Shown here in pieces: positions 1-27,820 of a stretch of 64,000 nt of DNA. Source of the DNA: Apus apus (Eukaryota > Chordata > Aves > Apodiformes > Apodidae); contig NC_067285.1 in the NCBI RefSeq assembly GCF_020740795.1, positions 17,848,001-17,912,000 on the forward strand. Reading direction: 5' to 3'. Under the pieces are notes generated by a model. The model saw only the letters and a list, made by a program, of their open reading frames with translations, was not told the DNA's origin and searched no databases. The translations under genes were made by a program, and so were the position numbers. Positions within the stretch are counted from its first letter, which is position 1. Each line of letters opens with the position of its first letter.

Positions 1-925
1 AGACTTTGCCTTTCTCAAATAATCTTCTCTGCCCAATTGATGTTTTTGATTGTTATCAACAGCAGTTCTTACTTAGAAAGATGTATGTAAGGTAATTACA
101 GTTCTTTGGAGTGAAGGGTAATTGAGCATAAGTTCCTGTTATTATCACACTCTTGTTAGAAACCTTCAGCTACATGAAAGTACTTCAGAACAGATATTGG
201 CTTCCAGATCAGCAGGAATAGCTTGAAGCATTTAAATGGGTCCCATTCCATTAAAAATGAAACATGTTGGATTCTGCTGCTTCAGCTGAGGACCATGACA
301 ATGTCCATGGTTGAAAACAACAGTGAAGGGTAGTTAATGAAAAGATCTTTGAAGAAAATTAATATTCATGAATGCCACAAAGCTGGGTTTCTGATGTAGA
401 TTAGATACAGTTTAGCTTAGTTGGACACATAACTGGTAAATGCCATTTCCAAAGTTGTAAACAGCTATTTGAGTGCCTGTGAGCCTCTGTGCATGCGTGA
501 CAGTCCAGAAAATTTTACGCCTCTCTTACACTCGAAGCTGCAGCCCAGAACTGGCACTGCTGTGTTTGTTGGTCCTCACAGTAGGAGGGATCAAAAAGTA
601 AATTCTCAAATGCATCAGTGCCAGTCACTCGTTTGGCTGGGCACCACCTATGGCTGTAGCCTGGATTTCATCCCTAAACTGCATGCATACAGTTTTTCTG
701 ACTGTCAGTTCTGTTCACAGAGACTACCCCTTGTCACAGAAGCAATAACATTGTAACATTCAATAGCATCTTTATCTTGATTATTCCAGTAAATATTCTG
801 TAAAATATTTTCTGTTGTTTGGATCCCCAAAGTCCCTCACTGCTTACTTACATTTATACAAATAATAAACATTACTTCTTCTGGCATAGCAAAAAAACAT
901 TTCAGTGACTGGGTTGCTTGCTTAC
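1..925 (-). other. Start of intron 1 of the IFIT-like gene (runs off left edge)
   Basis: This stretch follows the splice donor at 925 (minus strand). IFIT genes carry almost all of their coding sequence in one large second exon of about 1.4 kb. No minus-strand reading frame of that kind is present here, so the exon should lie beyond the left edge. The plus-strand open frame at 469-756 has no recognisable domain and I treat it as chance. Confidence 0.5.
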
Positions 926-982
926 CTCATGGTTTTCCTTCTTTTCTCACTTGTCTTAACGTAGCTTCAAAGCCAAAGGAGT
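926..982 (-). CDS. IFIT5: IFIT-family first exon: 5' UTR plus the first five coding bases (partial gene)
   Basis: IFIT proteins are interferon-induced tetratricopeptide-repeat proteins that bind non-self 5' ends of RNA in the cytosol. Seen directly on the minus strand: a start codon at 930-928 in a strong context (A at -3, CC before ATG), then AG, then a perfect donor GTAAGC beginning at 925. An exon that ends after ATG-AG, splitting the second codon (Ser), is the family's usual first exon. The transcription start near 980 is inferred from the TATA box at 1007-1015. Position supports the call: in human the IFIT cluster lies next to LIPA and reads away from it, as here. The name IFIT5 is by synteny, since birds are generally annotated with one IFIT gene. 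The main coding exon is outside the window, so nothing can be said about the protein itself. Confidence 0.66.
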
Positions 983-1006
983 TCTGCTCACTGTTGTTAT
1001 GACTCC

Positions 1007-1015
1007 CCTTTTATG
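1007..1015 (-). promoter_or_regulatory. TATA box of the IFIT-like promoter
   Basis: The minus strand reads CATAAAAGG. It lies about 80 bases upstream of the ATG, between the ISRE and the predicted first exon, which suits a start site near 980. Confidence 0.6.
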
Positions 1016-1027
1016 TGCTTCAGCCCT

Positions 1028-1033
1028 CACGTG
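1028..1033. promoter_or_regulatory. Palindromic E-box CACGTG within the IFIT-like promoter
   Basis: The sequence is TCACGTGA including its flanks, which is the core of the motif bound by USF and by the MiT/TFE family (TFEB, TFE3; the CLEAR motif). It lies between the TATA box and the nearer ISRE. Its use is inferred from position only. Confidence 0.4.
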
Positions 1034-1059
1034 ATCTGGGAGTAATTTGGAGGAAAGCA

Positions 1060-1071
1060 GAAAGTGAAACT
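1060..1071 (+). promoter_or_regulatory. Interferon-stimulated response element (ISRE), proximal
   Basis: The plus strand reads GAAAGTGAAACT, an exact match to GAAANNGAAACT bound by ISGF3 and IRF factors. The mammalian IFIT2 promoter carries the same core. It sits roughly 85 bases upstream of the inferred minus-strand start site. Confidence 0.7.
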
Positions 1072-1120
1072 TCAACTTCTGTCTGAATCTGTAAAGAAGC
1101 AGGAACAGCGGCCAGTAGGG

Positions 1121-1130
1121 GAATCGAAAC
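1121..1130 (+). promoter_or_regulatory. Second IRF-type element (distal)
   Basis: The sequence GAATCGAAAC matches the IRF core GAANNGAAA. It is 50 to 60 bases from the proximal ISRE; IFIT promoters commonly carry two such elements upstream of the TATA box. It is a weaker match than the first. Confidence 0.5.
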
Positions 1131-1140
1131 AGGAACACTA

Positions 1141-4100
1141 AGCTGCTTTTCTATTTTTTTCAGCCCAGCCTGGCTCCATGCCATGCATTACATCGTGTTG
1201 CAGAGAATGTGGCAATAGCTCCTAACAGCTCCCAGCACTTACTTTGTTCAAATCCAGGGATATCTATTATAAGGAGAATATTTAAGACTAGTATAAACTG
1301 ACCTGGTTATCATGCATATGCCTGGGAAGGGTCATTTCCCCCTCCTGCCTCTGGTGATGCTTCTCTTCACATTTTTGCATCACACTAAAACAAATCTGTT
1401 TTATTGGTATTGTGTCATCCACCATTCGCATGACGTCTTATTGTCCCTGCCTGCACTCATTTATGTCCACCTCATGTCTCCACATGACAACTTCTCTGCT
1501 GTTGTACCAAAGTTGTATTTCTCTGTGCTATGTCATTTTCTTGGTGTCCTAAATATCCATTCTCACCTAGAAACACTGCTTGTTCCTGGTGTCTACATAA
1601 AACCACAGTGGTACTGGAGCACCTATGGGTATTGATTAGTGGTCAGAGTCAACCAAAACAGAGAACAGAATTCCTCTCTATTACCCCCCAGCCACTCTCA
1701 CAGGGGAAGATAAAAGGGGAATAAGGAAGAGAAGCTTAAAGGTGGGTAGTTAAAACTAGAGCAGGTCTAGTAGAATGGGAAAGGGATAGTAACATATGAA
1801 TAATCATGACTAATATGCACATATATGTGAAGTCCAGTTTCAGTGATCACTGATATAAACCAGAAGTTCCTGGTTGGAAAAGCTGACACAGGAAAACAGT
1901 TCAGGGTCCTTTCCAGTACTCAGTGAAGTCAGATCCTGCAGACAATATGGTGTGTTGAAGATAATGAGTGCAAGGCTCTGTCCAAAAGGTTTGCCAGCTG
2001 AGTGAAGGGAGGCAAAAGGAAGAAGAGCCAGACTTTTCTGCCCTCCTGGCTGTTTTAAAGTATGGCAGAAAATGGGAGGGAATATCAACGCCTTCCTGTT
2101 CTGCCCCTTGGATCCTTCAGAGTCCTAAACATCCTCTTTCTAGGTTGTCACGTTAATACCATAATATTAGCCTATGCTCCCTCGAACCATGACAGATACA
2201 GACAGATCACTGATATTTAGTTAAAAAGAATAAATAGATGCAGACCTGGCTTAATAAAATCAATTTTAAGAGTAACAAAGGGATGAGAGAAATAGTATCT
2301 AACATAAGTAAAGATGCTATATATAGTAAATTTGCATGTAACCTGAAGCTGCAGACCAGTGAAGAAAGAGAAATGCATAAAAGCATGTTAGCAAACATAC
2401 TAAAAATTACCTAAAGTGGATCCTGGGGAGAGGAAAAAGAAACTACCACCATTATCATCATGTTTCTTTCATGATGGGCCATGTGACTCTCCAGTAGTCA
2501 GCAGCTAGTGATCTAAATGCCCAGAGGAGCAATTTCTAGGGGAAGAAATAGAAACTAAGAAGTGTGTGTGTAACAATACAAACTATAATATTGCCATTTA
2601 TTTAGACTTTTTCTGTAAGTTCTTTATTACTATTTCTTTTTGTAATAAATAGATACAGACTAATGGCAATTCTTGAATTAGACTAAGAATATAATTAATT
2701 AACAAAAAATTATTGTCTTTACCTATGTATATAGTTTGCTTCCTCTTTATCCATAAACATCACAGAACCACTCTCCGTTATTGAATCCATTCAATTTTAA
2801 AATGTGAAAGCATCTTGTTAAAAATGTGTAGTTAGATAGTGTCTTAAGTATACATAGGTTTCTTGTCCCTGCTTCTGTTCTAGGTGTCTGTTTTCCATGG
2901 TACAAACTCAATTCCTAGGTACCAGCATTGCTTAGTATCTAGCTTGGCATATATGAGAAAATTAAGGAATTTTCCTTCTGGAATGCAAAAAATTGGCCTA
3001 TTAACCATATTTTTACAAATTTAGTTGCATCTGTATGATTTGTTTGAACAAAAATGCTTATTGAATACAGTAAGTGCAGAGAAGTGCTTAGAGTAAGTGA
3101 AAGTAGGATAATAGTTATGCAATGTCTTTCTGCAGCCCATTTTTGTAACTTGCTTGGCACAGCACAGGAAAATTCAGAATTCCTTCTACAGTCCTGCTGC
3201 TTTCGTTTCAGGGAAAAGCTGCGGCTGCGCTGATTGGTATCAGGGAGAGTTACATTGTGTAGCAGCAAATGCCAAAGATTCTTGGGAAACGCTGGTCCAG
3301 AAATGGGCTGCAAACAACAACTGCATTCACATTTAATATAAAGACTTTGTTTACTCGAGTGTTCTGTACATGTACAAGGATAGGGAATGGCTTAAAAAGT
3401 ATTTACACTTTTATGAGAGAAAATTCTTATCTGTATATCTCCTTGGAGCTGAAATGGATACCTCCTGACAAAGAGTTCTCCCCTGGCATCATTAGTCCAG
3501 CCAAAAGATTGCCTGAAATGCAGTTATCATTATTAAAATAATGCATACTGTCTATGTTATAGTAAATGACAGGATCATTTAAAATATTTTGTGCAGGTTT
3601 CAATTAAGCCTAGTTTAAAATATAATTATTATGTTTGACAGCTGCAGTTATGGCATTTAGTAACTTGGATTTTCCTCCGGGGAGAGAAGAGTATCCTGTA
3701 CTTAGTTTTACAGAGAACCTAAGTGAATCACTGAGCAATATTTTGGCTGCCCAAGTTCTTTAAAATAAAATGACCCTAAGAAATGGGATTCAGGAATGCA
3801 AAGGGTCGCATAGTGTCTCTTGTACTGAGTGAGGTATCCATGCATGAAAACAAGGGGGTGTTGTGAAAACTTTAAAAAAATTATTTTTATTTTTTAATTA
3901 AAAAGCTTGATGGTTTCTAAATAGAAACAGTTCTACCTGACACGCTCCTGCTTAACCACTGTGTATTTTGTATCAAGTTTCTGCATTACTCTGAAGATAC
4001 TGCTGTGGGCGTAGTAACATGAATATTTATATTACAGGATTGAATTTGGTCCAAGCTTTTGCAAGCCTGGTCACAAGTCTGCTGACTACAGATGCGATTA

Positions 4101-4319
4101 TCTGGGAACTTGCACACGTGCAATACGATGTCGGATAGTTTGCCTCAGAGCACGAAGGTGAAACAGGTTCGCAGGAAGGTGATGGTCCCCCTGCTGGAAC
4201 TGTGTGCCGGGGTGTAACTTTAGCCCACTTGTGTTAGATTCGGTATATTTAGGCTGTGCTCAAAGGCGTTGGACAGATAATCTGTTTGCGTAAGAATAAC
4301 GGTGATTGCTGACAGCGTT
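1141..4319. other. Intergenic spacer between the divergent IFIT-like and LIPA promoters
   Basis: AT-rich sequence with no exon that I can support. The open frames here (for example 1312-1635 plus, 2939-3313 minus) show no known domain or splice context. An E-box CACGTG is present at 4115-4120, about 200 bases before the LIPA CpG island. Confidence 0.5.
4115..4120. promoter_or_regulatory. E-box CACGTG upstream of LIPA
   Basis: LIPA is a known target of TFEB in mammals. The flanks here (GCACACGTGCAA) lack the TCACGTGA context preferred by TFEB, so this may be only a general E-box. Confidence 0.25.
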
Positions 4320-5540
4320 TATAGCTCGGAAGGACCGGCTCCTCCAAAGTGCCGGCTGGGAAGCTCCCTCGGGGCTGCTGCGGGGAGAGGCCGTGACGGA
4401 CGAGGCCTCATCCCCTCCCTGCTGCTGCCTTCTCCCTGCAGGCTGCGGCGGGGCCGGGGCGGGAGGCGCGGTGAGGACTGCGGGGCTCCGGGTGAGGGGC
4501 GGCTGTGCAAGGCGAGGAGGGCTGAGAAGAAAAAAAAACAATGGGCGTGGTTCTCGGGGTTGAAAAGAGTTCTGAAAATGGGAGTCCTGGGGAGCGGGGG
4601 GATCTACACAAGCGGTACTTGAGAAATGCTGAATCATACCGGCTCAGGCAGCCCAAGGCCGCGTGCTCCCGGCCCGCCGGCGGGCGGCGGGGAGCTGCGG
4701 GCAGGGAGAGGCAGGAGAGGCCGGGGGCTCGGCAGCCACAGCCCCCGGGCGGGCTCCCGCCCCGCAGGGCCCGGTGGGGTGGGCCGGGCGGGCCCCGCCG
4801 CTGCCGATAGGCCGCGCCGCATGGCCTGAGCCGCGCCGCCGGCCCAGCGCCCTCCTCCCGCCGCGCTCAGCGTGCGGCGCCGCGGGCGCAGGCCGGTCCC
4901 GCGCGGCAGCAGCTCCCCGCGGAGGCCGCCGTCCCGCTGTCGGGAGGCTCCGAGGCGCGGGACACGCCCGGGCGCCCAGCCCGGCAGCGCAGCGCAACGG
5001 GGTTGGCCGCTCTCGTCCAGCCGCTCGGGGCCGGACGACGCCTCCGGCCCGCGGGCTGCCTCCCCGTCGCTGACAGGACCGCGCCCGCCCCGCTCCTGGT
5101 CCTGTCAGGCGGGCGGGCGTCCCCGCCCCTGCCAGGCGGTCCCGCGCCGGTCGCCGCGCCAGGCGGAGGCGGTAGTAAAGCCTCGGCGGGGTCCGCACTT
5201 TGCTACCCCAGCGCCGGGTCCAGCCCCTCCGCAGCGAGCCGGGGCCTCCCGCCTCCTTCCCGTGGGAGCAGGATGCGGAGCCTGGTGGTCGCCGCTTTCC
5301 TTCTGCAGAGCGTCGCCGGTTCGGGCGCGTTCCCCAGAGAGAGGAGAAATGTGGACCCTGAAACGAACATGAACATTGTGAGTGGCGGGGGGCGGCGAGG
5401 GAGAGGTGCCCGGGACTTTAGCCGGCTGTAACGGGGCGAGGAGAGGAGCAGAGGGGTCTGGGCGGCGTTGCGGCCCCTTCGCGGCTCCGCGGGCGTCGAG
5501 CTGGTGGCTCCCGGCCCCGCAGCCGCCGCGAGAGCCCCGG
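4320..5540 (+). promoter_or_regulatory. CpG-island promoter of LIPA
   Basis: About 1.2 kb of very GC- and CpG-rich sequence with several GC-box-like runs, in sharp contrast to the AT-rich flanks. It covers the LIPA start codon and the first coding exon. This is the usual form of a housekeeping promoter without a TATA box. The many overlapping open frames here, on both strands, come from base composition. Within it, GTGAGG donors at 4471 and 4492 and a pyrimidine-rich acceptor ending at 5271 would allow a separate non-coding first exon. Confidence 0.8.
5273..5377 (+). CDS. LIPA: LIPA coding exon 1 (residues 1-35)
   Basis: Encodes the signal peptide and the start of the mature chain, ending in phase 0 at donor GTGAGT. 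Asn34-Ile-Ser36 is a sequon that spans the junction with the next exon. It corresponds to human exon 2, because the human gene has a non-coding exon 1. Confidence 0.93.
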
Positions 5541-8500
5541 AGACTTTCAGCCACTGGTCAGCGGCAGCCTGCTGCTGTCTGCACCCTCTGCTTCTGCCTC
5601 GTCTTTCTCTTCGCCTCCTCCCAGGTTCTTCTTGGTCCCCTGTTGCATGTGGCTGACCATTCTCCTACAGATTTTCCGATCCAGACCTGTGTTTTTTGCT
5701 AGAGACAGAACACTCTCTCTTCTCTGCTAGAAGAGCGTGTGTTTATGGAGCGCACCTGTGCTACTGGCACCATCCTCCCGTGTTCCTAACTGCAACTGCT
5801 TTTCTTCCATTTGGCATTTACTGTCTTAACTTTGTTCTCCTTCTGCTGCAATAGCCAACGCCAGAAAATATTTGCTGTGGGTAACTGGTGTTAGTGCCTC
5901 TTTCCTGCCCCCATCTAAATTTGTGATATTTTTTTCACATGTGAGAGGATACTTCATGTTAGAGATGCTTAAGGTCTATAAGAAAAGATGTGCTTGAGCC
6001 GTCAGTATAATCTAAATATAATTTTGAGGACTGAAAATACTAATTTAGTTTAAGGCTAATAATATTTGAATGGAATTTAGCCTTAAAATAATTTTGGAAT
6101 GTTCATGTCACTGTGGATGACTAAAGATATATTTAAAATAAATAGTATTTTTAATGAAATACTCCTTCTCTTCACTGCCCAGCAGCCTACGAGTAGAACT
6201 CAAATGATATCTTGCATTTCTTAAATTTTATCTAGGCACGCTTGGTGTCATAAAGCCAATTAAACAGCATGTCCTCTCTGTCCTAAAGAAGTTAAATCAA
6301 ATGAAAATAGCATAAAGCCTGAGACATAGGAGGTGGGACATAAATCTATTAATGGAACCATAGTGTTAAACAAGTGTTTTTTTTTAAATTATTGTTTTCT
6401 TGTTTGGCTTGTCAGTAAAGTCACTTGAAAGCTCTGCAACAGACAAGGTTTGAGGAGAAAGTTGAGTAAGAAATGGCACATGAAACCACGAGCTGAGGTC
6501 GCAGTGTCAGCACTTCACGCATGTGAAAAGCATGCCTTCCTGTTTGAAAGCTGCTGTGTTTGTAGTTAATTTCAGCGTGTTGCATAAACATGATTGTGTC
6601 CTCTGTATAACAGCATAAAGTTCAGGTATAAATCTGAGATGTTTTTAGAGAAGCCTTTCCCTTTAGGGGAGGTGAACTTCTTTCCTTTTCTTCCGTATGC
6701 TGCTGTGGTGCCAGTGGCTTTTTGCTGTCTGCACTTTTTTATTACTGGAAGATACTGCTTTTCTTCAGAGCAGGCAGTTTCCATTTTTGTCTGTCAAATC
6801 ACATCTTGGTGTTTTGCTGTGTTAACACAATCTCCTTTTACAACACTTAAATCTCCATTTCAATCTCCTTTCTCACTTTAGCAGTGTGTGAGTATCTAAG
6901 ATGACAGTGGATAGGGACAGCTTATGGAGTCCTCCCAAACTCCTAGGGTGAGGTTTGTGCACTGGTTAGCTCCTGACTCTATGCTGGGCTAAGTCTCATA
7001 AGAAAACCTGTTTGTATTTAATAGGTGGGTGGTATGGCACTGTCCTACCACATCCTTTAATTTCACATATCTGTCTTTGAAAGAAACCCAGAATACTTTG
7101 CACATGTTAATGAACTGAGGAGACTGGCAGTCTGACTCTAAGGCAATTTCTTTTTCTACAGAGTCAAATTATTACCTTCAGGGGATACCCTAGTGAGGAA
7201 TATGAAGTAACAACAGAAGATGGCTACATCCTTTCCATTAATAGAATTCCTTATGGAAGAAAAGGCCTTGACAGGAGCAAAGGTAAGATTTATGTCCACT
7301 TGGAAAAATGATAAAACTCTCCTTGATTTATAGAACTTTTGCTCCTGTAATAATACAGAAAAAGCCTAAAGACTCTATGACCTGATAGAGTATTTTATTG
7401 GTGAATGTAGATTAGGTCAAAGTATGTAGATTGAATGAACAAAGAATGTAGATTGGCCAAAATAGATTAGGCACATGTAGAGTTACCTGAGTGAAGGAAG
7501 GGAGAAGTTAGAAACCTTTATTTTCCTGGCATTGCCTTTTTGTGACAGTAATACAAGCCCTTTGTTGCTGTTTGATTTTTCTGAGGGGCTGAGAGGCCTG
7601 TTTTTTCTAGGAAGTGGAAAATAAGGGTTGAAACTTACTGGATTTTTAAAGTAATGAAGTCTCTAGAAAAGAGTTTGATTGTAACATTGTTGGGTTATTT
7701 CAAACCCCATTTAAAAAAATGCTTCTTTGTAACAAGTAAGTTTCTTAAAAATGCCTGACCTTTTTTCAGCAATGGGGGAAGCTCGCACGCCTCTTTTGGT
7801 GAAATGTGACTGAACCAAAAGAATTCCCAGTAGAATGTTAAAAAAATACAGTAATTTCTTGATTTCTGCATGAAATCAGAATTTGTTTGTTAATTTTAAT
7901 GTCTCTGAAGCTCCCTTTGCAGTAAGGTACAGGCCAGACAAATATTGCATACTACTGGGGTGTCATACTTTACACAGCTACTTAAATGGATTAAAAATAT
8001 AATAGGATAAAATGCCTTCTTGACTACATCTGAAGTACAATACGTTTAAAACCATATTGCAAATTAGGATTTGTAACAGGTAGTTGACAACAGGTAGCCC
8101 AAACTAGGCTGTCTTATGGGTATGACTTGATGGGGGGACTAGGAGGAGCATTGACAAGTGCTGCCAGAGCTCAGTTAGGAGCTGTAGGAATTGCCGTGAA
8201 AGCTGGTCTAAATCCACAGAAGGGATGCAGGGGGTGTATGAGTGAGGAGGTATGGTAGAAGGATAGAGGGGATGGAAGCCAAAACTTAAGGGAGCAATAT
8301 GGGTGAAGTTTTTTTTGCAAGGGTGGAGTGATGGAATGCTTTTAAAAAGAGACAAATACATGTTGAAGAGGAGAGACATGTTGCCTTTGACTTGCTATCC
8401 TCATACACTGCATATGGAATTAACAGTGTATTTGACAGACAATCCCATGTATCCAACAGTAGGCTGTTTGCACAGGAACTGTAGATATTCTGAGAACTGC

Positions 8501-11500
8501 CTCAGAACCCTTTGGACTGAAAAAAACCCTAGAAAGAGAGGTAAAAACATGGAGCTCACAAAACACACTAGTCATTGTCCTATAGCCTTGGGTGCGAACA
8601 AGACCTGTGGAAAACCCCTCTGCCAAAGGCAAAGCAACAGCCTTCCTGACCTTATCTGTGGTTTTGTATAAGTTAGGATGTTTGCACCATTTGCTGCCTC
8701 TCACAAGGTGGTTGTGTAAAGATCAGTGCTTGGACGAGGCCAGTCGGACCACGCAGGTGTCTTTGTACTTAAGAATTTCAGAAACGCCCCCAGGAAAAGG
8801 ACATCTGCCTTTGTACCTGTTGATTTTGTCAAAGCCTTCATTGATGACACAAGCAAACAGAAGTTTCCTTACTTGTGGGAATTCTCCACATTCCCCTTGC
8901 CACACCCCCGACCCCAAGTTCATGTTTTGCAAAGTGCTTTAATTTTAAAAACAAGGATTACTGAGCACATTTGGGGAAGTATGGTCTCCTAGAAGAATGA
9001 AGACTTCAAAGTTCATGTTGATCTTAAGTTTTTATAGACTTGGTATCTTTTCTCAGAAAGATACCAATGATGTGTTAGTGCTGACTTGTTGTATATGTGT
9101 CATAATTCTTCTTTTGCAATACCTGCAAAATGTGAATAGAATCCCTGGGAATTATGTATCACATGATGTTTTGGAACAAAACCTACAGTTCTTCAATTAA
9201 AATAAAAAAATAATTAAAAAAAATGTCCAGGGAATCTAAAAGCAAAACATCAATGATCTTTGGTTTTAGTATTAACTGAACATGCATAGCATGGGTAACA
9301 AGGACATGGAAATACATTTGTCTTCAGATTCTTGGGGGTGCGCTGAGTAGAACAAAACGTTCTGTTGTAGAAAGGGTAGTTTAAGGGCCAACCTTTCTTA
9401 TTTCCCTTCTGGGGTTTTTAGGATCAGAGTTTATACAAAATTATTATCGTCCAAGTAATTTTGTCATGTGTTTGTGCAGTTCATGTGCAGATCTGATGAC
9501 TGCTTAGTAAAGTGAAAAAGGAACTGGCAAGAATTGGAGGCCAGTAGGAGAACAGAATTGAAGCATTAAAGCAGTTAAACAGCTTTGCCCTTCCTCTGTT
9601 ATGACACATGCAAATAGGAGGAGGAGAACTGGCTCTTCAAAAAATCAGAATTTAGTTGATACAAGTTCAGTAAAAGAGAAGAACTTATCAAAGCTGAAGG
9701 TGGGCATTACTGAAAACAAATTTAATGTTAGGCTTGAAAGTTCTGCACGCTGTTCATAGGGTCATGAAGTGTTACTGCAGCAGAGTAAACAGTTGTGTTG
9801 AACAGCACTGCCTCCAGTGATGGCTGGACACTGCTGGAAATTCACTGTGGTTGGAAGGCAGTATGTTACAACGTGTGTTTTTTCTTAACAAAATGGGAAA
9901 AGTAAGCAAGGAAAAGGTCCCTGGTGACAGGTGTAAGGGTTGCCAGGAGGCAGGAATATTGCCAATTTGGATTTTGGATCCCACAGCAGACATTTACGGA
10001 CGTGACCTGGAATGGAGGGTGTAGGTGACGGAAATGGTTGTGACTTGGGTGTTTCTGCTGAAAGATCCAAGTTTAAATTATAAACGGAGGAAGCATTATA
10101 TGAGTTAGTATTGTCGTAGAATGATGAGTCATTGGAGGTGGTAAATTCCTGAGTAATCTCTGGCATTGAGTTAAAGTTACCATCTTATCAGATTTCAGTT
10201 ATTAAAGCAGAACACCTGTGCTACTGCAAGATCCAGAGACAAGTCCTTGGATTTTATGAAGTCCATGTTCCTCTGAAAGGATTATATGTTGTTTTCTTTT
10301 TGTAGAAGCAGGAACCTTCAGGTTTTTAAATCTGACATAAAGGTGTCACTTCCCATTTCAGCGTGGGTAAGTCAGGAGAGAGGCTTCTTAAATTCCACCT
10401 TGACTGTGGTCCTGTGGTACGAAGGTCAGGGGGATAAAATCCTCTGAAACATAGATCCCCTTGTTGGCTGCTTGTACTTCATGTTGTGCCAGAGCTTTGG
10501 TAATGGAGGGGAGCTGCATAGGGATAATATCAGTACACTTTGCAGAGATTTCCACAGCTCAGCACTGTAGTCTGGCATTGTCTTAACTGGAAAACGAAGA
10601 TCTCAGTAACACATATATGGGAATGCCTTCCCTAGATTTAGGAGCAGGGCAAGGGTCATAAGTAGTTTGGCTATCTCTGTGTTTGGGCCACTTTGCTGAG
10701 TATTTGTGAGCTTGAAAAAGTAGTAAGGGCTGCCTGTATTTTTCTTGTAGATCCTGGTTCTCTCATGTTTTCTGATTGCATGTCTGCTCTCAGTTTTGAA
10801 ATTCAAAGAGTCTTTTGCTCTAGTTAGGAAACTAACAAGTTGCCAGTTTAAAATTCTTAATGATAAAACATAGCTTTTTGTGAAAACACCTGATTTAATG
10901 GCACAATGAATATTATACAAATTGCTAATCTTAGATTAAGTCAAGTAGATTAAACATTCAAAGTGCAAATCTAAAGCAGACTTTCAATAAATCACTTGAA
11001 TTATTCTTAGCCATTCAGTTCTGGATGAACAGGAAGCTATGATAAATGCTTTATTTTTCAGGTCCAAGGCCTGTTGTGTTTCTGCAGCATGGTTTGCTTG
11101 CAGATGCCAGCAATTGGATCACAAACCTGGATTACAATAGCCTTGGCTTTATGCTGGCAGATGCTGGCTATGATGTATGGTTGGGAAACAGCAGAGGGAA
11201 CACCTGGTCCAGGAAACATACACACTTCACAGTGAAGCAAGAAGAATTCTGGGTTTTCAGGTATCCTTATTTTACTAGACAAACTAGAGAAATTACATAT
11301 GCTGATGGCAAGTAGGTTTCTTTTCCACTCTTTGCCTATCATCTTAGTTCAACCACATTGTGAATGTACAGGAGTGTTTTGTTTGTTTGTTTGTTTTTCT
11401 GGTTACGTGTGCTACACACATAAAACTCTGTAAAGCTGAGTTTTATGGTCATTACTGTGTCCTGAGGTAGCCTTCATACATGGTCAATAGAATGTTAATT

Positions 11501-14500
11501 GCTTTCACTGGTGCTTGGTGAGAAGACTCAATCAACCGAGTGTTCTGCCTCCCCTGAAGGGAGCTTTTCTTCATGTCCAGATCAATCTATCTGCAGTGCA
11601 GTTGTCCCACACTGATAATTTACTTACACAACAGACTTTTTATCTTTGCTTTGTAGCTTTGATGAAATGGCTAAGTATGACATTCCAGCCTCAGTGGACT
11701 TCATTTTGAAGAAGACTGGCCAGGAACAAGTATTTTACATTGGCCATTCACAGGGCACCACAATGGGTATGTGAAGAGATACATACATTAGATTTGTGCT
11801 TGAAATTGTATCAAGTTCCACATATGTGGTTTAATGATTAAAAAATAAGGCATTTGAAATCTACTGCTTCTGGTTTTTAATGCTTCCTGGAATATTCATG
11901 AAAATTAAAAATAAAACACTTAAGCTTTTTATGTTTACTTAAAGTGGGAAGCTGTTGAAAAGATAGATTGAAGTAATAGGTACCCGCCAGTACAGTTACT
12001 ATTAAAATAAACTGGTGAACTGCGTGCAATAAAATTAGAATCATCAGACATGATGCTTTTTCTCTATAAAAGGCCTGGTCCAGATGTTTTTAGACCTGCA
12101 GACAGAAAGAGCTGAAAAGGGTGTTGAGTTAGTTGGCACAAATTGTTTTTTCAGAAGAAAACAAATCCTTCTGACTTGCTTAATTTGTTTTGTGTTACAT
12201 AGTAACTAGATTAATTTAAAACATTTAAACTGATCCAAGAGACAACAGTAACATTATTAATCTAAAAATTCTTGTGTGCACACAATATATGTTAGATTTT
12301 CTAGAGTCACTGCCTGGTAAAATTCACATCTAAATGGTTTCAGTGAGGTTTGTTAATTATTCTCCCTTTATTTTCAGCTTTCATTGCTTTTTCAACTTTG
12401 CCACAGCTGGCTAAGAAAATAAAAATGTTCTTTGCCTTGGCACCAGTAGCTACAGTCAAGTTTGCCACTAGCCCTCTGGCAAAATTGGGAGTGTTTCCTG
12501 ACCTGCTACTGAAGGTTTGTGTTTGAGTGTAAATGTTTTAAGCCAGACAAGGTTTCCCCCTTTCTAGTTGAAACCAGCATAGAAAAGAATGTTAAAAACT
12601 CTGATTAGCTCATTGTCATTGACAGTACAGGCCAGTTTTTCCATAATAATGCTGTGGAAGTAAACAGTGGCTTCTCTGGCTTTACTGCTGTCTAATGAGA
12701 CAATTTTCATGAGTTTAAAGTAATATTTTACAATTGCAACATAAAGATGGAGTAAAATTATGTGTTTCTATTCACATGTTTATAGAATTTGTACTACAGA
12801 AATCACATGATTATAAAATAGTTGGTCTGTTTTAGAAGTCATATGATATCTTTATACAGAATATTTTTGAATTGTTATGAACTTTTAACAGATTTGTTGC
12901 ACAATTAACCATTTAGTAATACAAGAGGATCCTTCAGAGGGTGATTAAGAGCAGTAGCTTAATTTAGATGCTGTGAATCATCCTCTGGAGGAGTTTACTT
13001 TCCCCCATCAAAGGGAATGTAGGTGGAATGGCAAGCTGCAATATATCCCTGAAGCCAGGCACTGTGAACACCCTGCTATGTGTCATTTTTAACCCTCAGA
13101 TTTCTTCCCACCACCCACGGGCTGTTTGTTCCTGAGATAAACCCTTCTGTAATGTACCTTTTACAGATTAAATGCTTATGTGTTTGCATTATTGTAAGTG
13201 ATCCTGCTCTGTCTGGGGGATTGGACTAGATGATCTGTCAAGGTCCCTTCCAACTCCTGAGATTCTGTGTATGATTCTGTGTGATTAGTTCCCTGATCCA
13301 AAGGCAAATGCATAAAAGTCTTGTTCGTTGTGTAATGAACTTTGTCTAATGAGGATAGTAGCTGATCAACGCTGGTAAGTGCTGAGGAACTTGATTCTCA
13401 TGGTGACTTGCAAAAAACTGGAGTACAGAAGTACATGACAGAGGCAAACCCATGGGTCACTTTTTTAGAGAGCTGTGTGGGCCATTTTCAAATTCTTGGA
13501 CACTTTAAAGATACTCATCAGGAGGAAGTGGCTTATGGAACTTGTTTTTCTTACATGGCTTGAAGAGAGGAAGTTGCAAATACAAAGCCATTTAACATTA
13601 GCAGATGCAGCTTTAAACATTTTAGTCTTAAACAATTCCTATGAGAAGATGAGTAGTACTCCTGCAAAATACTGGATTTAAAACTGATAAGAAATTGAGG
13701 TTAGGTCTACATTTCTTTACTGGTGGTCACAGTTCCCATGTACTTTTAGTGGCAGTAATGGACTGCATCATTTGTAGCAGAAGCACTAACTGTGACCTTT
13801 CCACTGGCCTGTAAACAAGGTTGATAAGGAGATAAATAATTTTCGTATGACAGACCTGTCACCAGTGCAAAGACAAATACCTCAAGAATGCTGTAGAATG
13901 AAAAGTAAACCCAAGCTATTCTGTGCAATTACATGTTTGTCCTATGTGTTTCTTATTCTGTAGGACATGTTTGGAAAGAAACAGTTCCTCCCTCAGAATT
14001 TTTTGCTGAAGTGGCTTGCTACCCACGTTTGCACCCACAGAATACTTGATGACCTTTGCGGCAACATATTCTTTCTTCTGTGTGGTTTTAATGAGAGAAA
14101 CTTGAATATGGTGAGTTTTGGTTACTTTCAATAGCTGAGTTACTGTGAACTCTAACACGGTACTGTGTGTCACTGTAGTGATTGTCCTTTACATATAGTT
14201 AAAAAAACCCTCATACCTTCTTTATCATACTGGGTTTGGATTAATATTTTCCTTTGGTATAGATATACTTGCACAACTTAGACAGATAGAATTAATCTTT
14301 TCAAATGATACTGAAAAGCTAAAATACATTATTTTATATCTCTTGGGGAAGTGGGTGAAAAAAGTTAATTAATATGATGGTGCAAGTATTTAATTCCTTT
14401 TGCACAAAGTGAGGAATAAAGACACAATTTTCAAGAGAACGGTTGAAGTTTTCTCATCTCTGTCTCTTGGTGGATGTATGCAATTATTTTCTCTGGGACC

Positions 14501-17500
14501 AATTTCTGACTGTGCTGATGGCTTCATCTGTGATTCTTGTTCCAAAGGACTTGTTCACATGACTTGTTTCTTATCCAAAAGCTAGTTAACAGCAGCTGGC
14601 TTGAGATGGCCTTTTTTCATAGTGCTTCTTAAAGTGTTTCTAACTCCCTGAAGTCAGGAGAAGCTGGTATGTTTACCCACAGGTGGATGAAGACTGAGGA
14701 TGTTTTTATTGGATTGAGATGGAATTAACATTATTTTTTCACCATGCTATGTGCAAAATAATATATTTTTATTAGCCCAAAAGTGCAGGTTTTTATGTTT
14801 TCTTGCCCAGCATATACAGTTTTCATGGTTTTAGTGGTCGATAATATTTTTGTTTTCTTCCAGGATTTAAGTTTCCGCTGGGTATTTTCTACTTCTAAAC
14901 TTAAAGTGTGCTAAGTTCTGAATCATTTTGCACTCACAGCTACTAGTTTAAGTGTAGAGTAAATCAAGGGTCTCTGAAGGTCCATCTAAATATTAGTTAA
15001 TGTGCCCCCAACTATTACAATACTAGCAGTTTAAAAAATATATTCTGAATATAAAAGAAATTGTTAAGGGATAGCATTATCAGGTTTAAAGTTCTGCTTT
15101 GGAATTCTGCAATCATAAGTGAACTCCAAACATTTGAACTTTTTACCTGATCTACATATATGGTTCTAGTTAACTTTTGTTTATAACAGTTTTAAGAGGA
15201 ATGGCAAAATTTCTGTTAGTTGTTCAAGAGGCAATTATGGTTGCATTGTTGCACTGTGAGGAATAAACTGCATTATCTTGTTGCAGAGCCGAGTGGATGT
15301 GTATTCAACTCACTGCCCTGCTGGGACATCTGTACAGAACATGATCCACTGGAGCCAGGTAAAGTTTCCAGAATCTAAAATGTTTCTGAGCCTAGCTTGT
15401 TTCTCTGACTTGTTTGTAGAAGATTGATATCTCTCTTAAATGGCATAAAATTGTGGCACTTAGTGCCATGGTTTAGTGGATGTGGTAGTGTTAGGTCATA
15501 GGCTGGACTTGATCTCAGAGGTCTTTTCCAGTCTCAATAATCCTGTGATTATGTGAAAATGCAAAGAAATATATATGTAGCATAGCTCAAGTGAAATGGA
15601 AAAAATGGAACCACCAATTTTAAGTACTGGAACTGTTAACAGCAGCTGCTTTGATGATACTAACTTATGGTGACTCACCCCTCTTCCCTATTTCTTTGAA
15701 GGTATGCTAACTTAAGTAGTTCAAGACAGCAAATAATGCAACAGAGTAACTTAACTCAGAGATGCTGTAAGAAGTATTTACTCCTCTTTCAGCAAGGTAT
15801 ATTTACAAGTTATATTTTTAGCCAGTGAAAAGCAGCAGGCATTTTGTTCTGTTACATTCTGTTTGGCTTCATTTTCTATTTTAATACTGTATTTTGAATT
15901 TCACCTCAGTGCACAATTTCATGCCTGTGATGCTGTTGTGCCTGAAGCTTGCTCAGCAGGCTGACAAAAAATGAGAAGACATATGCCATGGAAGCAGTGG
16001 TCAGTGCAACTTGTGATCTTGTATCTGGACATAGTCATTTATTCAGAAGCAATGTTTTCTCTTGTACACAGCTGTTCAACTGTTGGCTCCGAAATAAATT
16101 TATGAAGACTTTTTTTTTTTTCCAGATACCTGTTATATAGACTACTGTTTCTGAAAAATAATAGGTGGTAATTAATACAGTGTAGACTTCCAAAGAAACC
16201 TCCATGCTGTGTTCATATATGTTTAGACAGCAAGGTCAGTATTTCAGAAGTTAGCATGGAGCTGCCACATCCTGGCTTTGGATACACTAAACTATTTTCC
16301 TTTATTTTTCCTACCGTTGCTACTAAAGAGTGTGAAATCTTAGGGGCTGAAGTCTAATGGTATCGAGTGTTTATGTTTCCCATCCCTGTGACACTGGGCA
16401 AAACAATGACACTTCTCCTTGTTAATACTTGACATTTCACTGTTTCTTGTGTCAGTTGCCTTTGCCAGTTCTGCAGATAACCTATACTTCTTTTTATACC
16501 TGCAATAAAAGTGTTGCAGTTCTTTCTATGTGTGAACATTTTTTAATTTCTAGGCTGTGAAGACTGGGGAACTCAAAGCTTATGACTGGGGAAGCAAGGC
16601 TGCAAATATGGCTCACTATAACCAGGTAGACATACTTATGGATATGTTATAATTCTAGTATGTCACAAAAAAAGTCCTTGGGTGCTTCTCTGGGTGTTAT
16701 ATTTATGCTGCATGCTAAAGAGACACTATGGTTGCCCAGTAACCAACTGGAGATCTGGTTTTTCCAAAAAAACCAGGACTGTAGAACTCTGGGGTACTCT
16801 TGAGTCAGTATGGAGCCCATGCTTGGATACAAAGCTGTGATGGCACACTGTTTCTTGAGGGTGATGCTGCCAGCCTAGATCATGAGATCCCATGGCACTT
16901 GTCACTATAAGGCATAGATTGTCATTTCATGTGCATTGTTTATCTTCAGACTGTTCAATTTCCACATTTGTTTCTAAATTGCTGTGTGCAATGCTAAAAG
17001 TATTTTGCTCCTTGTCACTTTAGTGGCTGGTAAGGATTGCAGTATCATACCTTCAGAGTAGCAATCACTTGTAGTGTTTTATTAGGGTTTATAAATAACC
17101 TGGATAGGATGCATTCTCTGAGACTTCTGCTACCCTGCTGTCTTGTAAACTTTTCAGACCACATCTTTACTTCTGTGCGTGCTATAATATTTTAGGACTC
17201 TTAGAGTTACATTTCCTGCTGACTCCATCTCCATCTCTAGCTGCCCAAGAGAGGAAGAGAAAATGAGAATCTGTCACATTCTTCTTAGTATGCTACACTG
17301 CACTACAGTATCACACCAGACTTGTTCTTTCTAATGCTTTTGTTTTAATTTTCCTCCTCCTCAGTCTACTCCCCCTTTTTACAAAATAAAGGAGATGACG
17401 GTACCAACCGCGGTGTGGACTGGTGGACAGGACTGGCTGGCAGACCCGAAGGATGTTGCTATGCTGCTCACTCAGATCACAAACTTGGTTTACCACAAAA

Positions 17501-17598
17501 GCATTCCAGAATGGGAACATTTGGATTTCATCTGGGGCCTTGATGCTCCTTACCGCATGTATAATGAAATAATTAACATGATGAGGAAGTATCTCTAA
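5273..17598 (+). CDS. LIPA: Lysosomal acid lipase / cholesteryl ester hydrolase, nine coding exons
   Basis: The enzyme hydrolyses cholesteryl esters and triacylglycerols in the lysosome, releasing cholesterol and fatty acids from internalised lipoproteins. Coding exons: 5273-5377, 7162-7282, 11062-11260, 11657-11766, 12378-12514, 13964-14110, 15287-15358, 16554-16625, 17365-17598. They total 1197 bases, or 398 residues plus stop (human 399). Every junction is GT-AG and the phases fit. Residues 1 to about 19 form a signal peptide (Arg2, then a hydrophobic run). The oxyanion loop HGLL is at 85-88. The nucleophile elbow GHSQG puts Ser at 173, and Asp344 and His373 complete the alpha/beta-hydrolase triad. 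Cys247 and Cys256 match the conserved disulfide of acid lipases. N-glycosylation sequons remain at Asn34, Asn272 and Asn320. The ATG has A at -3 and is the first Met before the signal peptide. Other acid-lipase paralogues (LIPF, LIPK, LIPM) are possible by sequence, but the neighbours IFIT and CH25H favour LIPA. Confidence 0.96.
5378..7161 (+). other. LIPA intron 1
   Basis: 1784 bases, GTGAGT to ACAG. The first part is still CpG-rich; the rest is AT-rich with nothing I recognise. Confidence 0.85.
7162..7282 (+). CDS. LIPA: LIPA coding exon 2 (residues 36-75 plus one base)
   Basis: Encodes the conserved N-terminal acid-lipase segment with YPSEEYEV and DGYIL. It ends in phase 1 at donor GTAAGA. 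Confidence 0.95.
7283..11061 (+). other. LIPA intron 2
   Basis: At 3779 bases this is the longest intron. Between about 8.1 and 10.9 kb, open stretches of 55 to 120 codons are unusually dense on both strands, for example 8303-8671 plus, 8420-8704 minus, 9885-10166 minus and 10391-10560 minus. No domain, terminal repeat or target duplication could be recognised. An old inserted element is possible but not shown. Confidence 0.8.
11062..11260 (+). CDS. LIPA: LIPA coding exon 3 (residues 76-142)
   Basis: Carries the oxyanion loop HGLLAD (from residue 85) and the strongly conserved block [12 protein letters not shown]. It ends in phase 2 at donor GTATCC; the frame reads through the donor for a few codons, which explains the longer open frame. 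Confidence 0.95.
11657..11766 (+). CDS. LIPA: LIPA coding exon 4 (residues 142-178), nucleophile elbow
   Basis: Contains FDEMAKYD and GHSQGTT with the catalytic Ser173. Intron 3 before it is only 396 bases. It ends in phase 1 at donor GTATGT. A Lys replaces the Asn of the human sequon at 160-162. Confidence 0.95.
12378..12514 (+). CDS. LIPA: LIPA coding exon 5 (residues 179-224)
   Basis: Encodes FIAFS through the conserved MFFALAPVA strand. It follows a 611-base intron 4 and ends in phase 0 at donor GTTTGT. Confidence 0.94.
12515..13963 (+). other. LIPA intron 5, with a CR1 tail
   Basis: 1449 bases, GTTTGT to GTAG. It contains a short CR1 3' fragment at 13198-13286. The open frame 13475-13681 shows no known domain. 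Confidence 0.85.
13198..13286 (+). mobile_element. CR1 LINE 3' fragment
   Basis: It has the CR1 tail signature GGACTAGATGATCT, then AAGGTCCCTTCCAACTCCT, then repeated GATTCTGTG units. The body is missing, as is normal for 5'-truncated CR1. Confidence 0.8.
13964..14110 (+). CDS. LIPA: LIPA coding exon 6 (residues 225-273), cap domain
   Basis: 147 bases, phase 0 at both ends. Carries the cap-domain cysteines 247, 256 and 264 and GFNERNLNM. Asn272 forms a sequon completed by the Ser of the next exon. Confidence 0.95.
14111..15286 (+). other. LIPA intron 6
   Basis: 1176 bases, GTGAGT to GCAG, AT-rich. I see no element or exon in it. Confidence 0.85.
15287..15358 (+). CDS. LIPA: LIPA coding exon 7 (residues 274-297)
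   Basis: A 72-base, phase-0 exon that can be skipped without a frameshift. It matches human exon 8, whose last base is the site of the common E8SJM splice mutation in acid lipase deficiency. Here the last base is the consensus G, followed by donor GTAAAG. Confidence 0.94.
15359..16553 (+). other. LIPA intron 7, with a CR1 tail
   Basis: 1195 bases, GTAAAG to CTAG. It holds a CR1 fragment at 15455-15555; otherwise AT-rich. Confidence 0.85.
15455..15555 (+). mobile_element. CR1 LINE 3' fragment
   Basis: Contains the CR1 signature GGCACTTAGTGCCATGG, then a GCTGGACTTGATCTCAGAGG-like block and a tail CCTGTGATTATGTG. Old and degraded. Confidence 0.75.
16554..16625 (+). CDS. LIPA: LIPA coding exon 8 (residues 298-321)
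   Basis: A second 72-base phase-0 exon, carrying AYDWGS and HYNQ. Asn320 makes a sequon with Ser322 in the next exon. Donor GTAGAC is the weakest in the gene. Confidence 0.93.
17365..17598 (+). CDS. LIPA: LIPA coding exon 9 (residues 322-398 and stop)
   Basis: Carries the other two triad residues: Asp344 in GGQDWLAD and His373 in [11 protein letters not shown]. It ends MRKYL then TAA, like the human C terminus MRKYQ. It follows a 739-base intron 8 with acceptor CTCCTCAG. Confidence 0.96.
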
Positions 17599-23129: not shown

Positions 23130-24743
23130 TCTGCTCACCTTGCACCTCACTTGGGCTTTATGTTGCAGAGTATATTAGTAATAACACTCTAGATTTCCGT
23201 TATTTTCCCTTAAGGGATTTACTATTTTTCTATGACCTAATCTGCAGGCAAAATGCCTGTTCTTTAAATTTTAGCTTATAGGCAGCAATCGTTCTAAAAT
23301 TTTTAGAGACTTTGGATGGCTATTAAGGATTAGTCAGAGGACTGTCTTTAGGCAGTTGAGCAGTTTCTGACCATCTCCCTTTAGGCAGACTTGGAATACA
23401 TTATAGAATAAATACGGTCCCTGCATAATTCTAGTAAAATAGAGAATCACATATCACATCTGGGAGGCTTAATTTCTGATTGTGACTAAATAAATAAACA
23501 GCAAGCATCTCTCAAGAATATTTTCAGCCCCAAATAATGATTGAGTTACAAATGCATTTTTATGTCCTTATCATGAAAGGGATGTCAGGATAAAATATAA
23601 TTAGAAGTTTGAAATTAAGGTTTTGCATATAACTTGATCAAATTTATTTTCTGAATAGTAAAGAACTAAAATGGTCTGAGCAAGCTAATAAAGTCATCCA
23701 GGAAGCTGAGCTCATTTCCAATATTAGAATAAATGCTGTACCCACAAAAGAGGTGAGTTCATAGGAAGCTGATGGCAAGCTCTTTTCCCCTAAATGTTCA
23801 GAGCTTTGTCTGTCTTTTTCTAAAAGCACAAAAGAAGAAGTGATGTATTAGTGGATAAATAAAAACCTCCATAATTTACCCCTAAAATACTTTTAGCAGG
23901 TTAGAAATTCAAGGAGTCAAGCCTGAGAGCTTCTGAATACTGCATGCTTCCCTATGATTAAAGGAAGATCCTTTAAAGGACTTAGCCCTAACCAGTGGAT
24001 CTTTTAATTATGTATGTTAATTTGGTACTTTGGGTAAAGTATTATTTCCATATTATATTGCTCAGAGAGCTGTTGACATGTGGAGTGAGTATTATAATAA
24101 TGCAATAATATTGTGACAAGGTATCTGTTTGGAAGCATAATGAGATTTTACCTTGTATTCTTCCCAGAAATTAGGAGATATTTTATTCTTCAAAAGTTGT
24201 TTGGTCAGTTTTGCATCTGGTCAAATCAGGTTGATTTTGTCTAGTAGATACATGAGCGTAAAAGAGAATATGAGCTTAAAAGTAGGTGGAGATGAGCCAC
24301 TGCCACCCCATTCAGGTTGGAAGAATATAAAGTTTTGACTTAGCCTGTTGTATACCCAAGAGATCATTAAGAAAATGTTTGTACACACCCATTACCCACC
24401 AAAACTCCACAGTCAGACTTAGGGTTTAGGTACATGTACATCTTTGGTAGCAGTCACGTTAAAAAAAATCAATTGTTGGATGTATTTCCTTACCTAAAAA
24501 GGCAAAACGATAGGAAAAGATGTCACAAGTGAAAATTAGTAATCTTTCTCTGAATTCCAGTGTTGGAGTTCTGGATTTCTGCTTAATTTTTCTTATTATG
24601 CAACTCTCCTTGTAGAGCTCCAGTAATTACCCTGGTCAGCTAATTCTGTTTGGAGATTGTAACGCATTATATGACTTCTGTGTAACAGGAAAGGTAGCTT
24701 CCTCTTTAAAGCTACGTATGACCAAGTAAGGAGGATTTCTGAT
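23130..24743. other. Spacer or intron upstream of CH25H
   Basis: AT-rich, no coding exon seen. It includes acceptor-like sites ending at 23168 (TGTTGCAG after a pyrimidine-rich run) and 24560 (CTTTCTCTGAATTCCAG). Confidence 0.4.
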
Positions 24744-24757
24744 GGGCGGAGTTTTCC
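24744..24757 (+). promoter_or_regulatory. GC box overlapping a kappa-B-like site near CH25H
   Basis: GGGCGG at 24744-24749 overlaps GGAGTTTTCC at 24748-24757, which fits the relaxed NF-kappa-B pattern GGRRNNYYCC. A TATA-like TTAGATAAAG follows at about 24768. This would suit a promoter induced by immune signals, but the start site would then lie within about 25 bases of the ATG. Inference only. Confidence 0.3.
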
Positions 24758-24815
24758 CTTGAGGAGGTTAGATAAAGGCTTGCAGGACTTACAGATCACT
24801 CAGACTGCACTCAGC

Positions 24816-25640
24816 ATGAACTGCAGCCTGCCAGACAGAGAGCTGCTCAGCTACGCCATGGATGGTCAGCAGGACAGGTTGTGTCTTCAGACTCTTTGGG
24901 ACTTTGTCACAGCAAATGAGGCATTGATCAGGTCACCGTTTTTTCCAGTGCTGTTTTCTTTTACAGCATACATGGCTTTCTGTCTTCCATATATTGCATT
25001 GGACTTTTTAAGCACTAGACTACCAAACTTGAGAAAATACAAAATCCAGCCGCAGAGCTATCCAACTCTTGGAATGATGGTGCCTTGCATTATTCAAAGT
25101 GCTTATCATCATGCTGTTTTGATCTTCCCGGTGACATTTCTCCACTGGTACTGGAGACCAATGAATCTACCAGTGATAGCTCCAGAGCTGCTTAAAGTCC
25201 TGCTGGAAGTAGGAGTTTGCCTGCTTCTGTTTGATTTTGAGTACTTTCTGTGGCATTTGCTTCATCACAAGGTGCCTTGGCTCTACAAGACCTTCCACAA
25301 GGTGCACCACAAGCATGTGTCAACATTTGCTCTTACTACCCAGTATTCCAGTGTATGGGAATTACTCTCACTAGGATTTTTTGCTGCTATCAACCCAGTG
25401 CTCCTCAGATGCCATCCTTTGACAGAAATGATTTTCTTCCTTGTAAACATTTGGTTGTCAGTGGAAGACCATTCAGGATATGACCTTCCATGGTCAACTC
25501 ACCGACTTGTGCCTTTTGGTTTGTATGGAGGAGCACCACATCATGATCTCCATCATCTGAAATTCAAGTCAAACTATGCTCCTTATTTCACTCACTGGGA
25601 CAAACTCTTTGGGACATTTACAGAGTCGCATTCTAATTAA
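24816..25640 (+). CDS. CH25H: Cholesterol 25-hydroxylase, single exon
   Basis: The enzyme is an ER-membrane di-iron oxygenase that converts cholesterol to 25-hydroxycholesterol, which restrains SREBP processing and has broad antiviral effect in mammals. The protein is 274 residues (human 272) in one exon, as in other vertebrates. Seen: MNCS gives an N-terminal sequon like human; hydrophobic segments lie at about 42-66, 122-146 and 203-216. The histidine boxes of the fatty-acid hydroxylase superfamily are HLLHH (147-151), HKVHH (161-165) and HHDLHH (242-247). The blocks HHKVPWLYKTFHKVHH and NIWLSVEDHSGY are diagnostic for CH25H. The frame is open for 19 more codons upstream but contains no ATG; the ATG at 24816 has A at -3 and matches the human N terminus. 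It follows LIPA on the same strand, as in human. It is intact, with no frameshift. Confidence 0.97.
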   Translation: MNCSLPDRELLSYAMDGQQDRLCLQTLWDFVTANEALIRSPFFPVLFSFTAYMAFCLPYIALDFLSTRLPNLRKYKIQPQSYPTLGMMVPCIIQSAYHHAVLIFPVTFLHWYWRPMNLPVIAPELLKVLLEVGVCLLLFDFEYFLWHLLHHKVPWLYKTFHKVHHKHVSTFALTTQYSSVWELLSLGFFAAINPVLLRCHPLTEMIFFLVNIWLSVEDHSGYDLPWSTHRLVPFGLYGGAPHHDLHHLKFKSNYAPYFTHWDKLFGTFTESHSN

Positions 25641-26668: not shown

Positions 26669-27820
26669 ATCGTAGAATCATAAAATTGTAGGGGTTGGAA
26701 GGAATCTCTGGAGATCATGGACTCTAACTCCTCTGCCAGAGCAGGACCACCTAGGGCAGGTCACACAGAAATGCATCCATATGGGTCTTGAAAGTCTTCA
26801 GAGAAGGAGACTCCACAACCTCTCTGGGCAGCCTCGTCCAGTGCTTGGTAACCCTTTCAATAAAGAAGTTTTTCCTCGTGTTGAGGTGGAACTTCTTATG
26901 TTCCAGTTTTTGTCCATTGCCATTCATCCTATCACAGGGCACCACTGAAAAGAGACTGGTCCACTCCCCTTGACTCCCAGCCTTCAGATATTTGTACACA
27001 TTACTAAGATCTCCTCTCAGTGTTGTCTTCTCTAGACGAAAAAGCCCCAGGTCTCTCAGCCTTTCCTCATAAGACAGGTGTTCCAGTCCCTTAATCATCC
27101 TCATAGCCCTGTGTTGGACTCTGAAGTAAATCCCTGTCCCTCTTGAACTGGGGAGCCCAGAATGAGACACAATACTCCAGGTGGGGTCTCACTAGGGCAG
27201 AATAGAGGGGGAAGATAACCTCTCCCGACCTGCTGGACACACTCTTCTTAATGCAACCCAGGATACTATTTGCCTTCTTGGCCATAGGAGCACATTGGTG
27301 CCCCAACGATAACTTGTTGTCCACCAGGACTCCAAGGTCCTTCTCCACAGAGCTGCTTTCTAGCAGGTCAGCTCCTAACCTGTACTGGTGCATGTTGTTG
27401 TTCCTTCCCAGTGGCAGAACTCTACAGTTATGCTTGCTAAATCTCATTATGTTCCCCTTTGCTCAGCTCTCCAATCTGTCTAGGTCTTGTTGAACGGCTG
27501 CACAGCCTTCTGGTATATCAGCCAATTCTCCCAGTTTTGTATCATCAGCAAACTTGCTGAAGATACACTCTGCCCCCTCATCCAGGTCGCTGATGAAGAT
27601 GTTTAACAGGACTGGACGCAGCGCTGATCGCTGGGGGACTCCACTAGTTACAGGTGTCCCCCTGGACTCTACACCCTTAATCATGACCTTCTAATCTTTA
27701 TTGTTTAACTGGTTCTCAGTCCATCTCACCATCCACTCTTCCAATCCACGCTTCATGATCTTACCCACAAGGATATTATGGGAGACAGTGTCAAAAGGCT
27801 TGCTAAAGCCCTGAAAGTAC
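26669..27820 (-). mobile_element. CR1 LINE, 5'-truncated and decayed
   Basis: CR1 is the main avian non-LTR retrotransposon. The minus strand keeps the end of the reverse transcriptase: [20 protein letters not shown] and the catalytic FADD motif (plus-strand bases 27541-27552), then KDLGVLVDNKLSLGHQ, then RMIKGLEHLSYEERLRDLGL. The readable pieces are 27463-27684, 27091-27447 (same frame, separated by at least one stop near 27460) and 26751-27170 (shifted frame), so the element is dead. The 3' end at 26669-26700 has the typical GGTTGGAAGGAATCTCTGGA block and ATTCTATG-like repeat, read on the complementary strand. The remnant at 27690-27820 still resembles the FAKAFDTVSH region. It lies antisense just beyond the CH25H 3' UTR. 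Confidence 0.93.

What the first reader, a model, noticed from the sequence alone, without database searches (positions are those of the whole stretch)
926..1130. Interferon-inducible IFIT promoter and first exon at the left edge
Seen: GAAAGTGAAACT (1060-1071) and GAATCGAAAC (1121-1130), a TATA box (1007-1015), then ATG-AG at a perfect donor GTAAGC, all in the right order and spacing for a minus-strand gene. The combination is the classic IFIT arrangement, and the position beside LIPA agrees with the human map. The gene would be missed by any ORF-based annotation, because only five coding bases are in the window.
Basis: partly seen in the sequence, partly recalled or inferred. Interest (0 to 1): 0.7.

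Follow-up and report, generated by a model that had tools for sequence, protein, structure and literature searches.

The report
IFIT antiviral gene promoter, first exon
The left edge of the window holds the switch region and tiny first exon of what is most likely an IFIT gene, a well-known interferon-triggered antiviral gene that sits beside LIPA in birds and mammals, so the finding is very probably right but ordinary.

Summary
Read on the minus strand, 1130-920 contains an IRF-type element (1130-1121), an exact ISRE (1071-1059), a TATA-like box (1015-1007), ATG-AG (930-926) and a donor GTAAGC (925-920), in promoter-to-exon order. The ISRE is the only exact match to a 13-base consensus in the window (0.12 expected). 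The ordered combination occurs once; 200 simulated windows gave 0 strict and 1 loose occurrence. LIPA begins at 5273 on the plus strand, head to head, followed by a CH25H-type ORF. This matches published chicken IFIT5: beside LIPA, two ISREs, and 1435 of 1440 coding bases in exon 2, leaving five for exon 1. The ISRE 12-mer is contained in the ISG54 ISRE probe. The deciding test, a TPR exon to the left, could not be run: six own-genome searches did not complete and the window holds only 925 bases of the intron. Verdict: very probably an IFIT (by analogy IFIT5) promoter and first exon; already known, low interest. 'Perfect donor' is overstated (7 of 9 consensus positions, counted by eye). The species was not identified.

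The parts
1121..1130 (-). distal IRF-type element (plus strand GAATCGAAAC, within GGGGAATCGAAAC 1118-1130)
   Evidence: weak on its own (6 GAANNGAAAC in the window, 2.87 expected)
1059..1071 (-). ISRE, AGTTTCACTTTCT on the gene strand
   Evidence: only exact match to RGAAASNGAAACT in 64 kb; GAAAGTGAAACT is contained in the ISG54 ISRE probe printed in PMC12205802
1007..1015 (-). TATA-like box CATAAAAGG
926..985 (-). first exon: 5' UTR and ATGAG; the upper end near 985 is a guess from the TATA box
   Evidence: start site not mapped
926..930 (-). five coding bases ATG-AG (phase 2)
   Evidence: matches the published IFIT first exon
1..925 (-). start of the intron, donor GTAAGC at 925-920; runs off the left edge
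   Evidence: longest minus-strand stop-to-stop piece lying wholly in 1-925 is 50 codons
5273..17595 (+). LIPA (start codon at 5273, last coding exon ends about 17595), head to head with the IFIT gene

Best explanation
The site is the promoter and first exon of a minus-strand IFIT gene, most likely the bird-type IFIT5. Shown here: the motif order, the single exact ISRE, the ATG-AG donor junction and the head-to-head LIPA neighbour. Inferred from what is known of IFIT genes: interferon activates ISGF3 (STAT1-STAT2-IRF9), or virus sensing activates IRF factors; these bind the ISRE at 1059-1071 and perhaps the IRF element at 1121-1130; transcription starts near 985; the first exon, with only five coding bases, is spliced at 925 to one large TPR-coding exon left of the window, giving an RNA-binding antiviral protein.
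For: Motifs at the stated places. Single exact ISRE, 0.12 expected. Ordered combination found once; 0 strict and 1 loose occurrence in 200 simulated windows. Two ORFs match the lysosomal acid lipase entry 6v7n at E 8.5e-39 and 4.6e-34, ahead of gastric lipases. CH25H-type ORF at 24675-25637 has Pfam FA_hydroxylase at 2e-24. Published chicken IFIT5: next to LIPA, two ISREs, exon 1 with little more than the start codon, 1435 of 1440 coding bases in exon 2. General rule: exon 1 codes ATG plus two nucleotides of codon 2. CH25H is among five genes beside IFIT loci in the vertebrate lineages of PMC3688568.
Against: No TPR coding sequence is seen; it lies outside the window. No RNA evidence for the start site or donor. 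The chicken ISRE as printed (GCTTTCACTTTCT) differs at 2 of 13 positions, and that paper says the ISREs were preceded by the TATA element, whereas here the TATA-like box lies between the ISRE and the ATG. Only one full ISRE is present; PMC3688568 describes two or three as typical. PMC3688568 names no LIPA in its main text. ACTA2 was not found: 0 of 6 exact actin peptide motifs matched in six frames.
Confidence: 0.92

Rival explanations
1. The promoter and first exon belong to an IFIT copy that is no longer functional, or to a lineage-specific paralogue other than IFIT5.
For: Five coding bases cannot tell copies apart; zebra finch has two IFIT genes.
Against: ISRE, TATA-like box, start codon and donor are all kept; chicken has one IFIT gene, in this position; the second zebra finch gene lies on another scaffold without these neighbours.
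Confidence: 0.05
2. The motifs are a chance combination, or an interferon-responsive enhancer without a gene start.
For: Single motifs such as GAANNGAAAC and ATG+2+GTRAG occur several times in the window; sites with one mismatch to the ISRE are not rarer or commoner than expected overall (4 against 2.275).
Against: The ordered combination occurs once and is hardly reached in 200 simulated windows, and it lies where an IFIT gene is expected.
Confidence: 0.02

Closest known systems
Chicken IFIT5 (chIFIT5; PMC5931624: passages, sections 5 and 8 read)
   Same: Next to LIPA; two interferon elements close to the start; first exon with only the start of the ORF (1440 - 1435 = 5 bases); large second exon after an intron of a few kb
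   Different: Printed proximal ISRE differs at 2 of 13 positions; TATA element described as preceding the ISREs; ISRE placed about 16 nt from the annotated start site, against roughly 75 nt here from a start site that I only inferred; the second element here is not a full ISRE
ISG54 (IFIT2) ISRE (probe sequence in PMC12205802, passage read; a like ISRE probe, gene not named, in PMC5438986, passage read)
   Same: GAAAGTGAAACT is identical; LIPA is the neighbour in the mammals compared in PMC5931624
   Different: Mammals carry several IFIT genes in tandem; that ISG54 is IFIT2 is recalled

Membership tests
IFIT gene family | First exon holds 5' UTR, ATG and two nucleotides of codon 2 | tested here: met
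   ATGAG then GTAAGC at 930-920; rule from PMC3688568. Splicing itself not observed
IFIT gene family | Two or more ISRE motifs within about 200 bp of the start | tested here: inconclusive
   One full ISRE at 1059-1071 and one IRF-type element at 1121-1130, both within about 150 nt of an inferred start; the second is not a full ISRE. The papers also report IFIT genes without an ISRE
IFIT gene family | Locus beside LIPA (PMC5931624) and CH25H (PMC3688568) | tested here: met
   LIPA from 5273, CH25H-type ORF 24675-25637, both plus strand. PANK1 and SLC16A12 would lie outside the window
IFIT gene family | Large second exon coding TPR repeats | not testable with these tools
   Lies left of the window; own-genome search unanswered
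IFIT gene family | Induced by interferon | not testable with these tools
   No RNA data in the tools

The most novel reading that the evidence does not exclude
The head-to-head 4.3 kb between the IFIT gene and LIPA may be a shared interferon control region: besides the promoter ISRE it holds two one-mismatch ISRE-like sites at 2432 and 2544, so LIPA may be co-regulated with IFIT.
Probability: 0.1. Interest if true: 0.3.

Novelty: already known. Interest (0 to 1): 0.1.

Why it matters
It shows that a gene with only five coding bases in view can be recognised from promoter grammar and neighbours; biologically it is the expected interferon-induced gene in its expected place.

Tried and rejected
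Chance combination: judged unlikely. A TPR exon inside the first 925 bases: minus-strand stop-to-stop pieces lying wholly there are at most 50 codons (one search listed those of 15 codons or more); none was searched against a library. Structured first exon: 926-985 is no more stable than shuffles (z 0.71; 148 of 200 shuffles fold at least as well). RNA families: 0 matches at gathering score in 64 kb. ACTA2: 0 of 6 exact actin peptide motifs matched in six frames of the window. Species: not identified. Three minus-strand ORFs within 26754-27690 look like a bird CR1 LINE from memory, but Pfam gave 0 families for 3 of 3, so 'bird' is an inference. Paper searches: 25 papers hold the terms, 20 listed; 2; 30, 25 listed; 11, 10 listed; text was opened for four papers only: PMC5931624, PMC3688568, PMC5438986 and PMC12205802.

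Full report
Observation. On the minus strand the order is: IRF-type element GTTTCGATTC (1130-1121), ISRE AGTTTCACTTTCT (1071-1059), TATA-like CATAAAAGG (1015-1007), start codon at 930-928, two more coding bases, and a splice donor GTAAGC (925-920). The ISRE is 129 bases from the start codon.

More than chance? The 13-base ISRE consensus matches exactly once in the window, 0.12 expected. With one mismatch allowed, 4 sites are seen against 2.275 expected, which is nothing special. The distal element and the ATG-plus-donor motif are each common by chance (6 against 2.87 expected; 5 places). The ordered combination of ISRE, TATA-like box, and ATG plus donor occurs once, and 200 first-order Markov windows gave 0 strict and 1 loose occurrence; the pattern was written after seeing the site and leaves out the distal element. 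The donor fits 7 of 9 consensus positions by eye, so 'perfect' is too strong.

Neighbourhood. ORFs at 11046-11312 and 17335-17595 match lysosomal acid lipase (PDB 6v7n) at E 4.6e-34 and 8.5e-39, ahead of two gastric lipases. In Pfam the first passes the Abhydro_lipase cut-off; the Abhydrolase_1 matches of both stay below theirs. Four of six LIPA peptide motifs from memory were found, all on the plus strand, from 5354 to 17509. The first coding exon begins at 5273 in a CpG-rich stretch of about 4001-5750. A single ORF at 24675-25637 has Pfam FA_hydroxylase at 2e-24; the name CH25H rests on recalled sequence and on the expected position. LIPA and the IFIT start are head to head, 4.3 kb apart between start codons.

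Comparison. PMC5931624 (passages, sections 5 and 8 read) describes one chicken IFIT gene, IFIT5, next to LIPA, with two ISREs near the start, a first exon that carries little more than the start codon, and 1435 of 1440 coding bases in exon 2. That leaves five, the number seen here. PMC3688568 (passages and section 6 read) gives the same exon rule for mammals (46 of 60 genes examined there, from mammals, two birds and zebrafish, have two exons) and lists FAS, ACTA2, CH25H, SLC16A12 and PANK1 as common neighbours; its main text does not name LIPA. A passage of PMC12205802 gives the ISG54 ISRE probe, which contains the window's GAAAGTGAAACT. Differences from chicken as printed: 2 of 13 ISRE positions, the position of the TATA element, and a second element here that is not a full ISRE.

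Limits. The TPR exon is outside the window, and the own-genome search did not complete in six tries. Species, IFIT copy, start site, splicing and inducibility are inferred. ACTA2 was not found by 6 motifs and FAS was not tested.

Other sites. Two further one-mismatch ISRE-like sites lie at 2432 and 2544. Within 931-4200 three such sites, the promoter ISRE included, were seen against 0.115 expected, and 0 of 600 simulations reached three. That region was chosen after the fact, and one of the three is the promoter ISRE itself, so this is a lead and no more.

Noticed in passing
2432-2444 and 2544-2556: Two one-mismatch ISRE-like sites (GGAAAAAGAAACT, AGAAATAGAAACT) between the IFIT gene and LIPA; with the promoter ISRE, three of the window's four sites with at most one mismatch lie in 931-4200.
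   Followed up: partly
4001-5750: CpG-rich stretch over the first coding exon of LIPA.
   Followed up: no
26754-27690: Minus-strand ORFs that resemble a CR1-type LINE from memory; Pfam gave no family for 3 of 3 pieces.
   Followed up: partly
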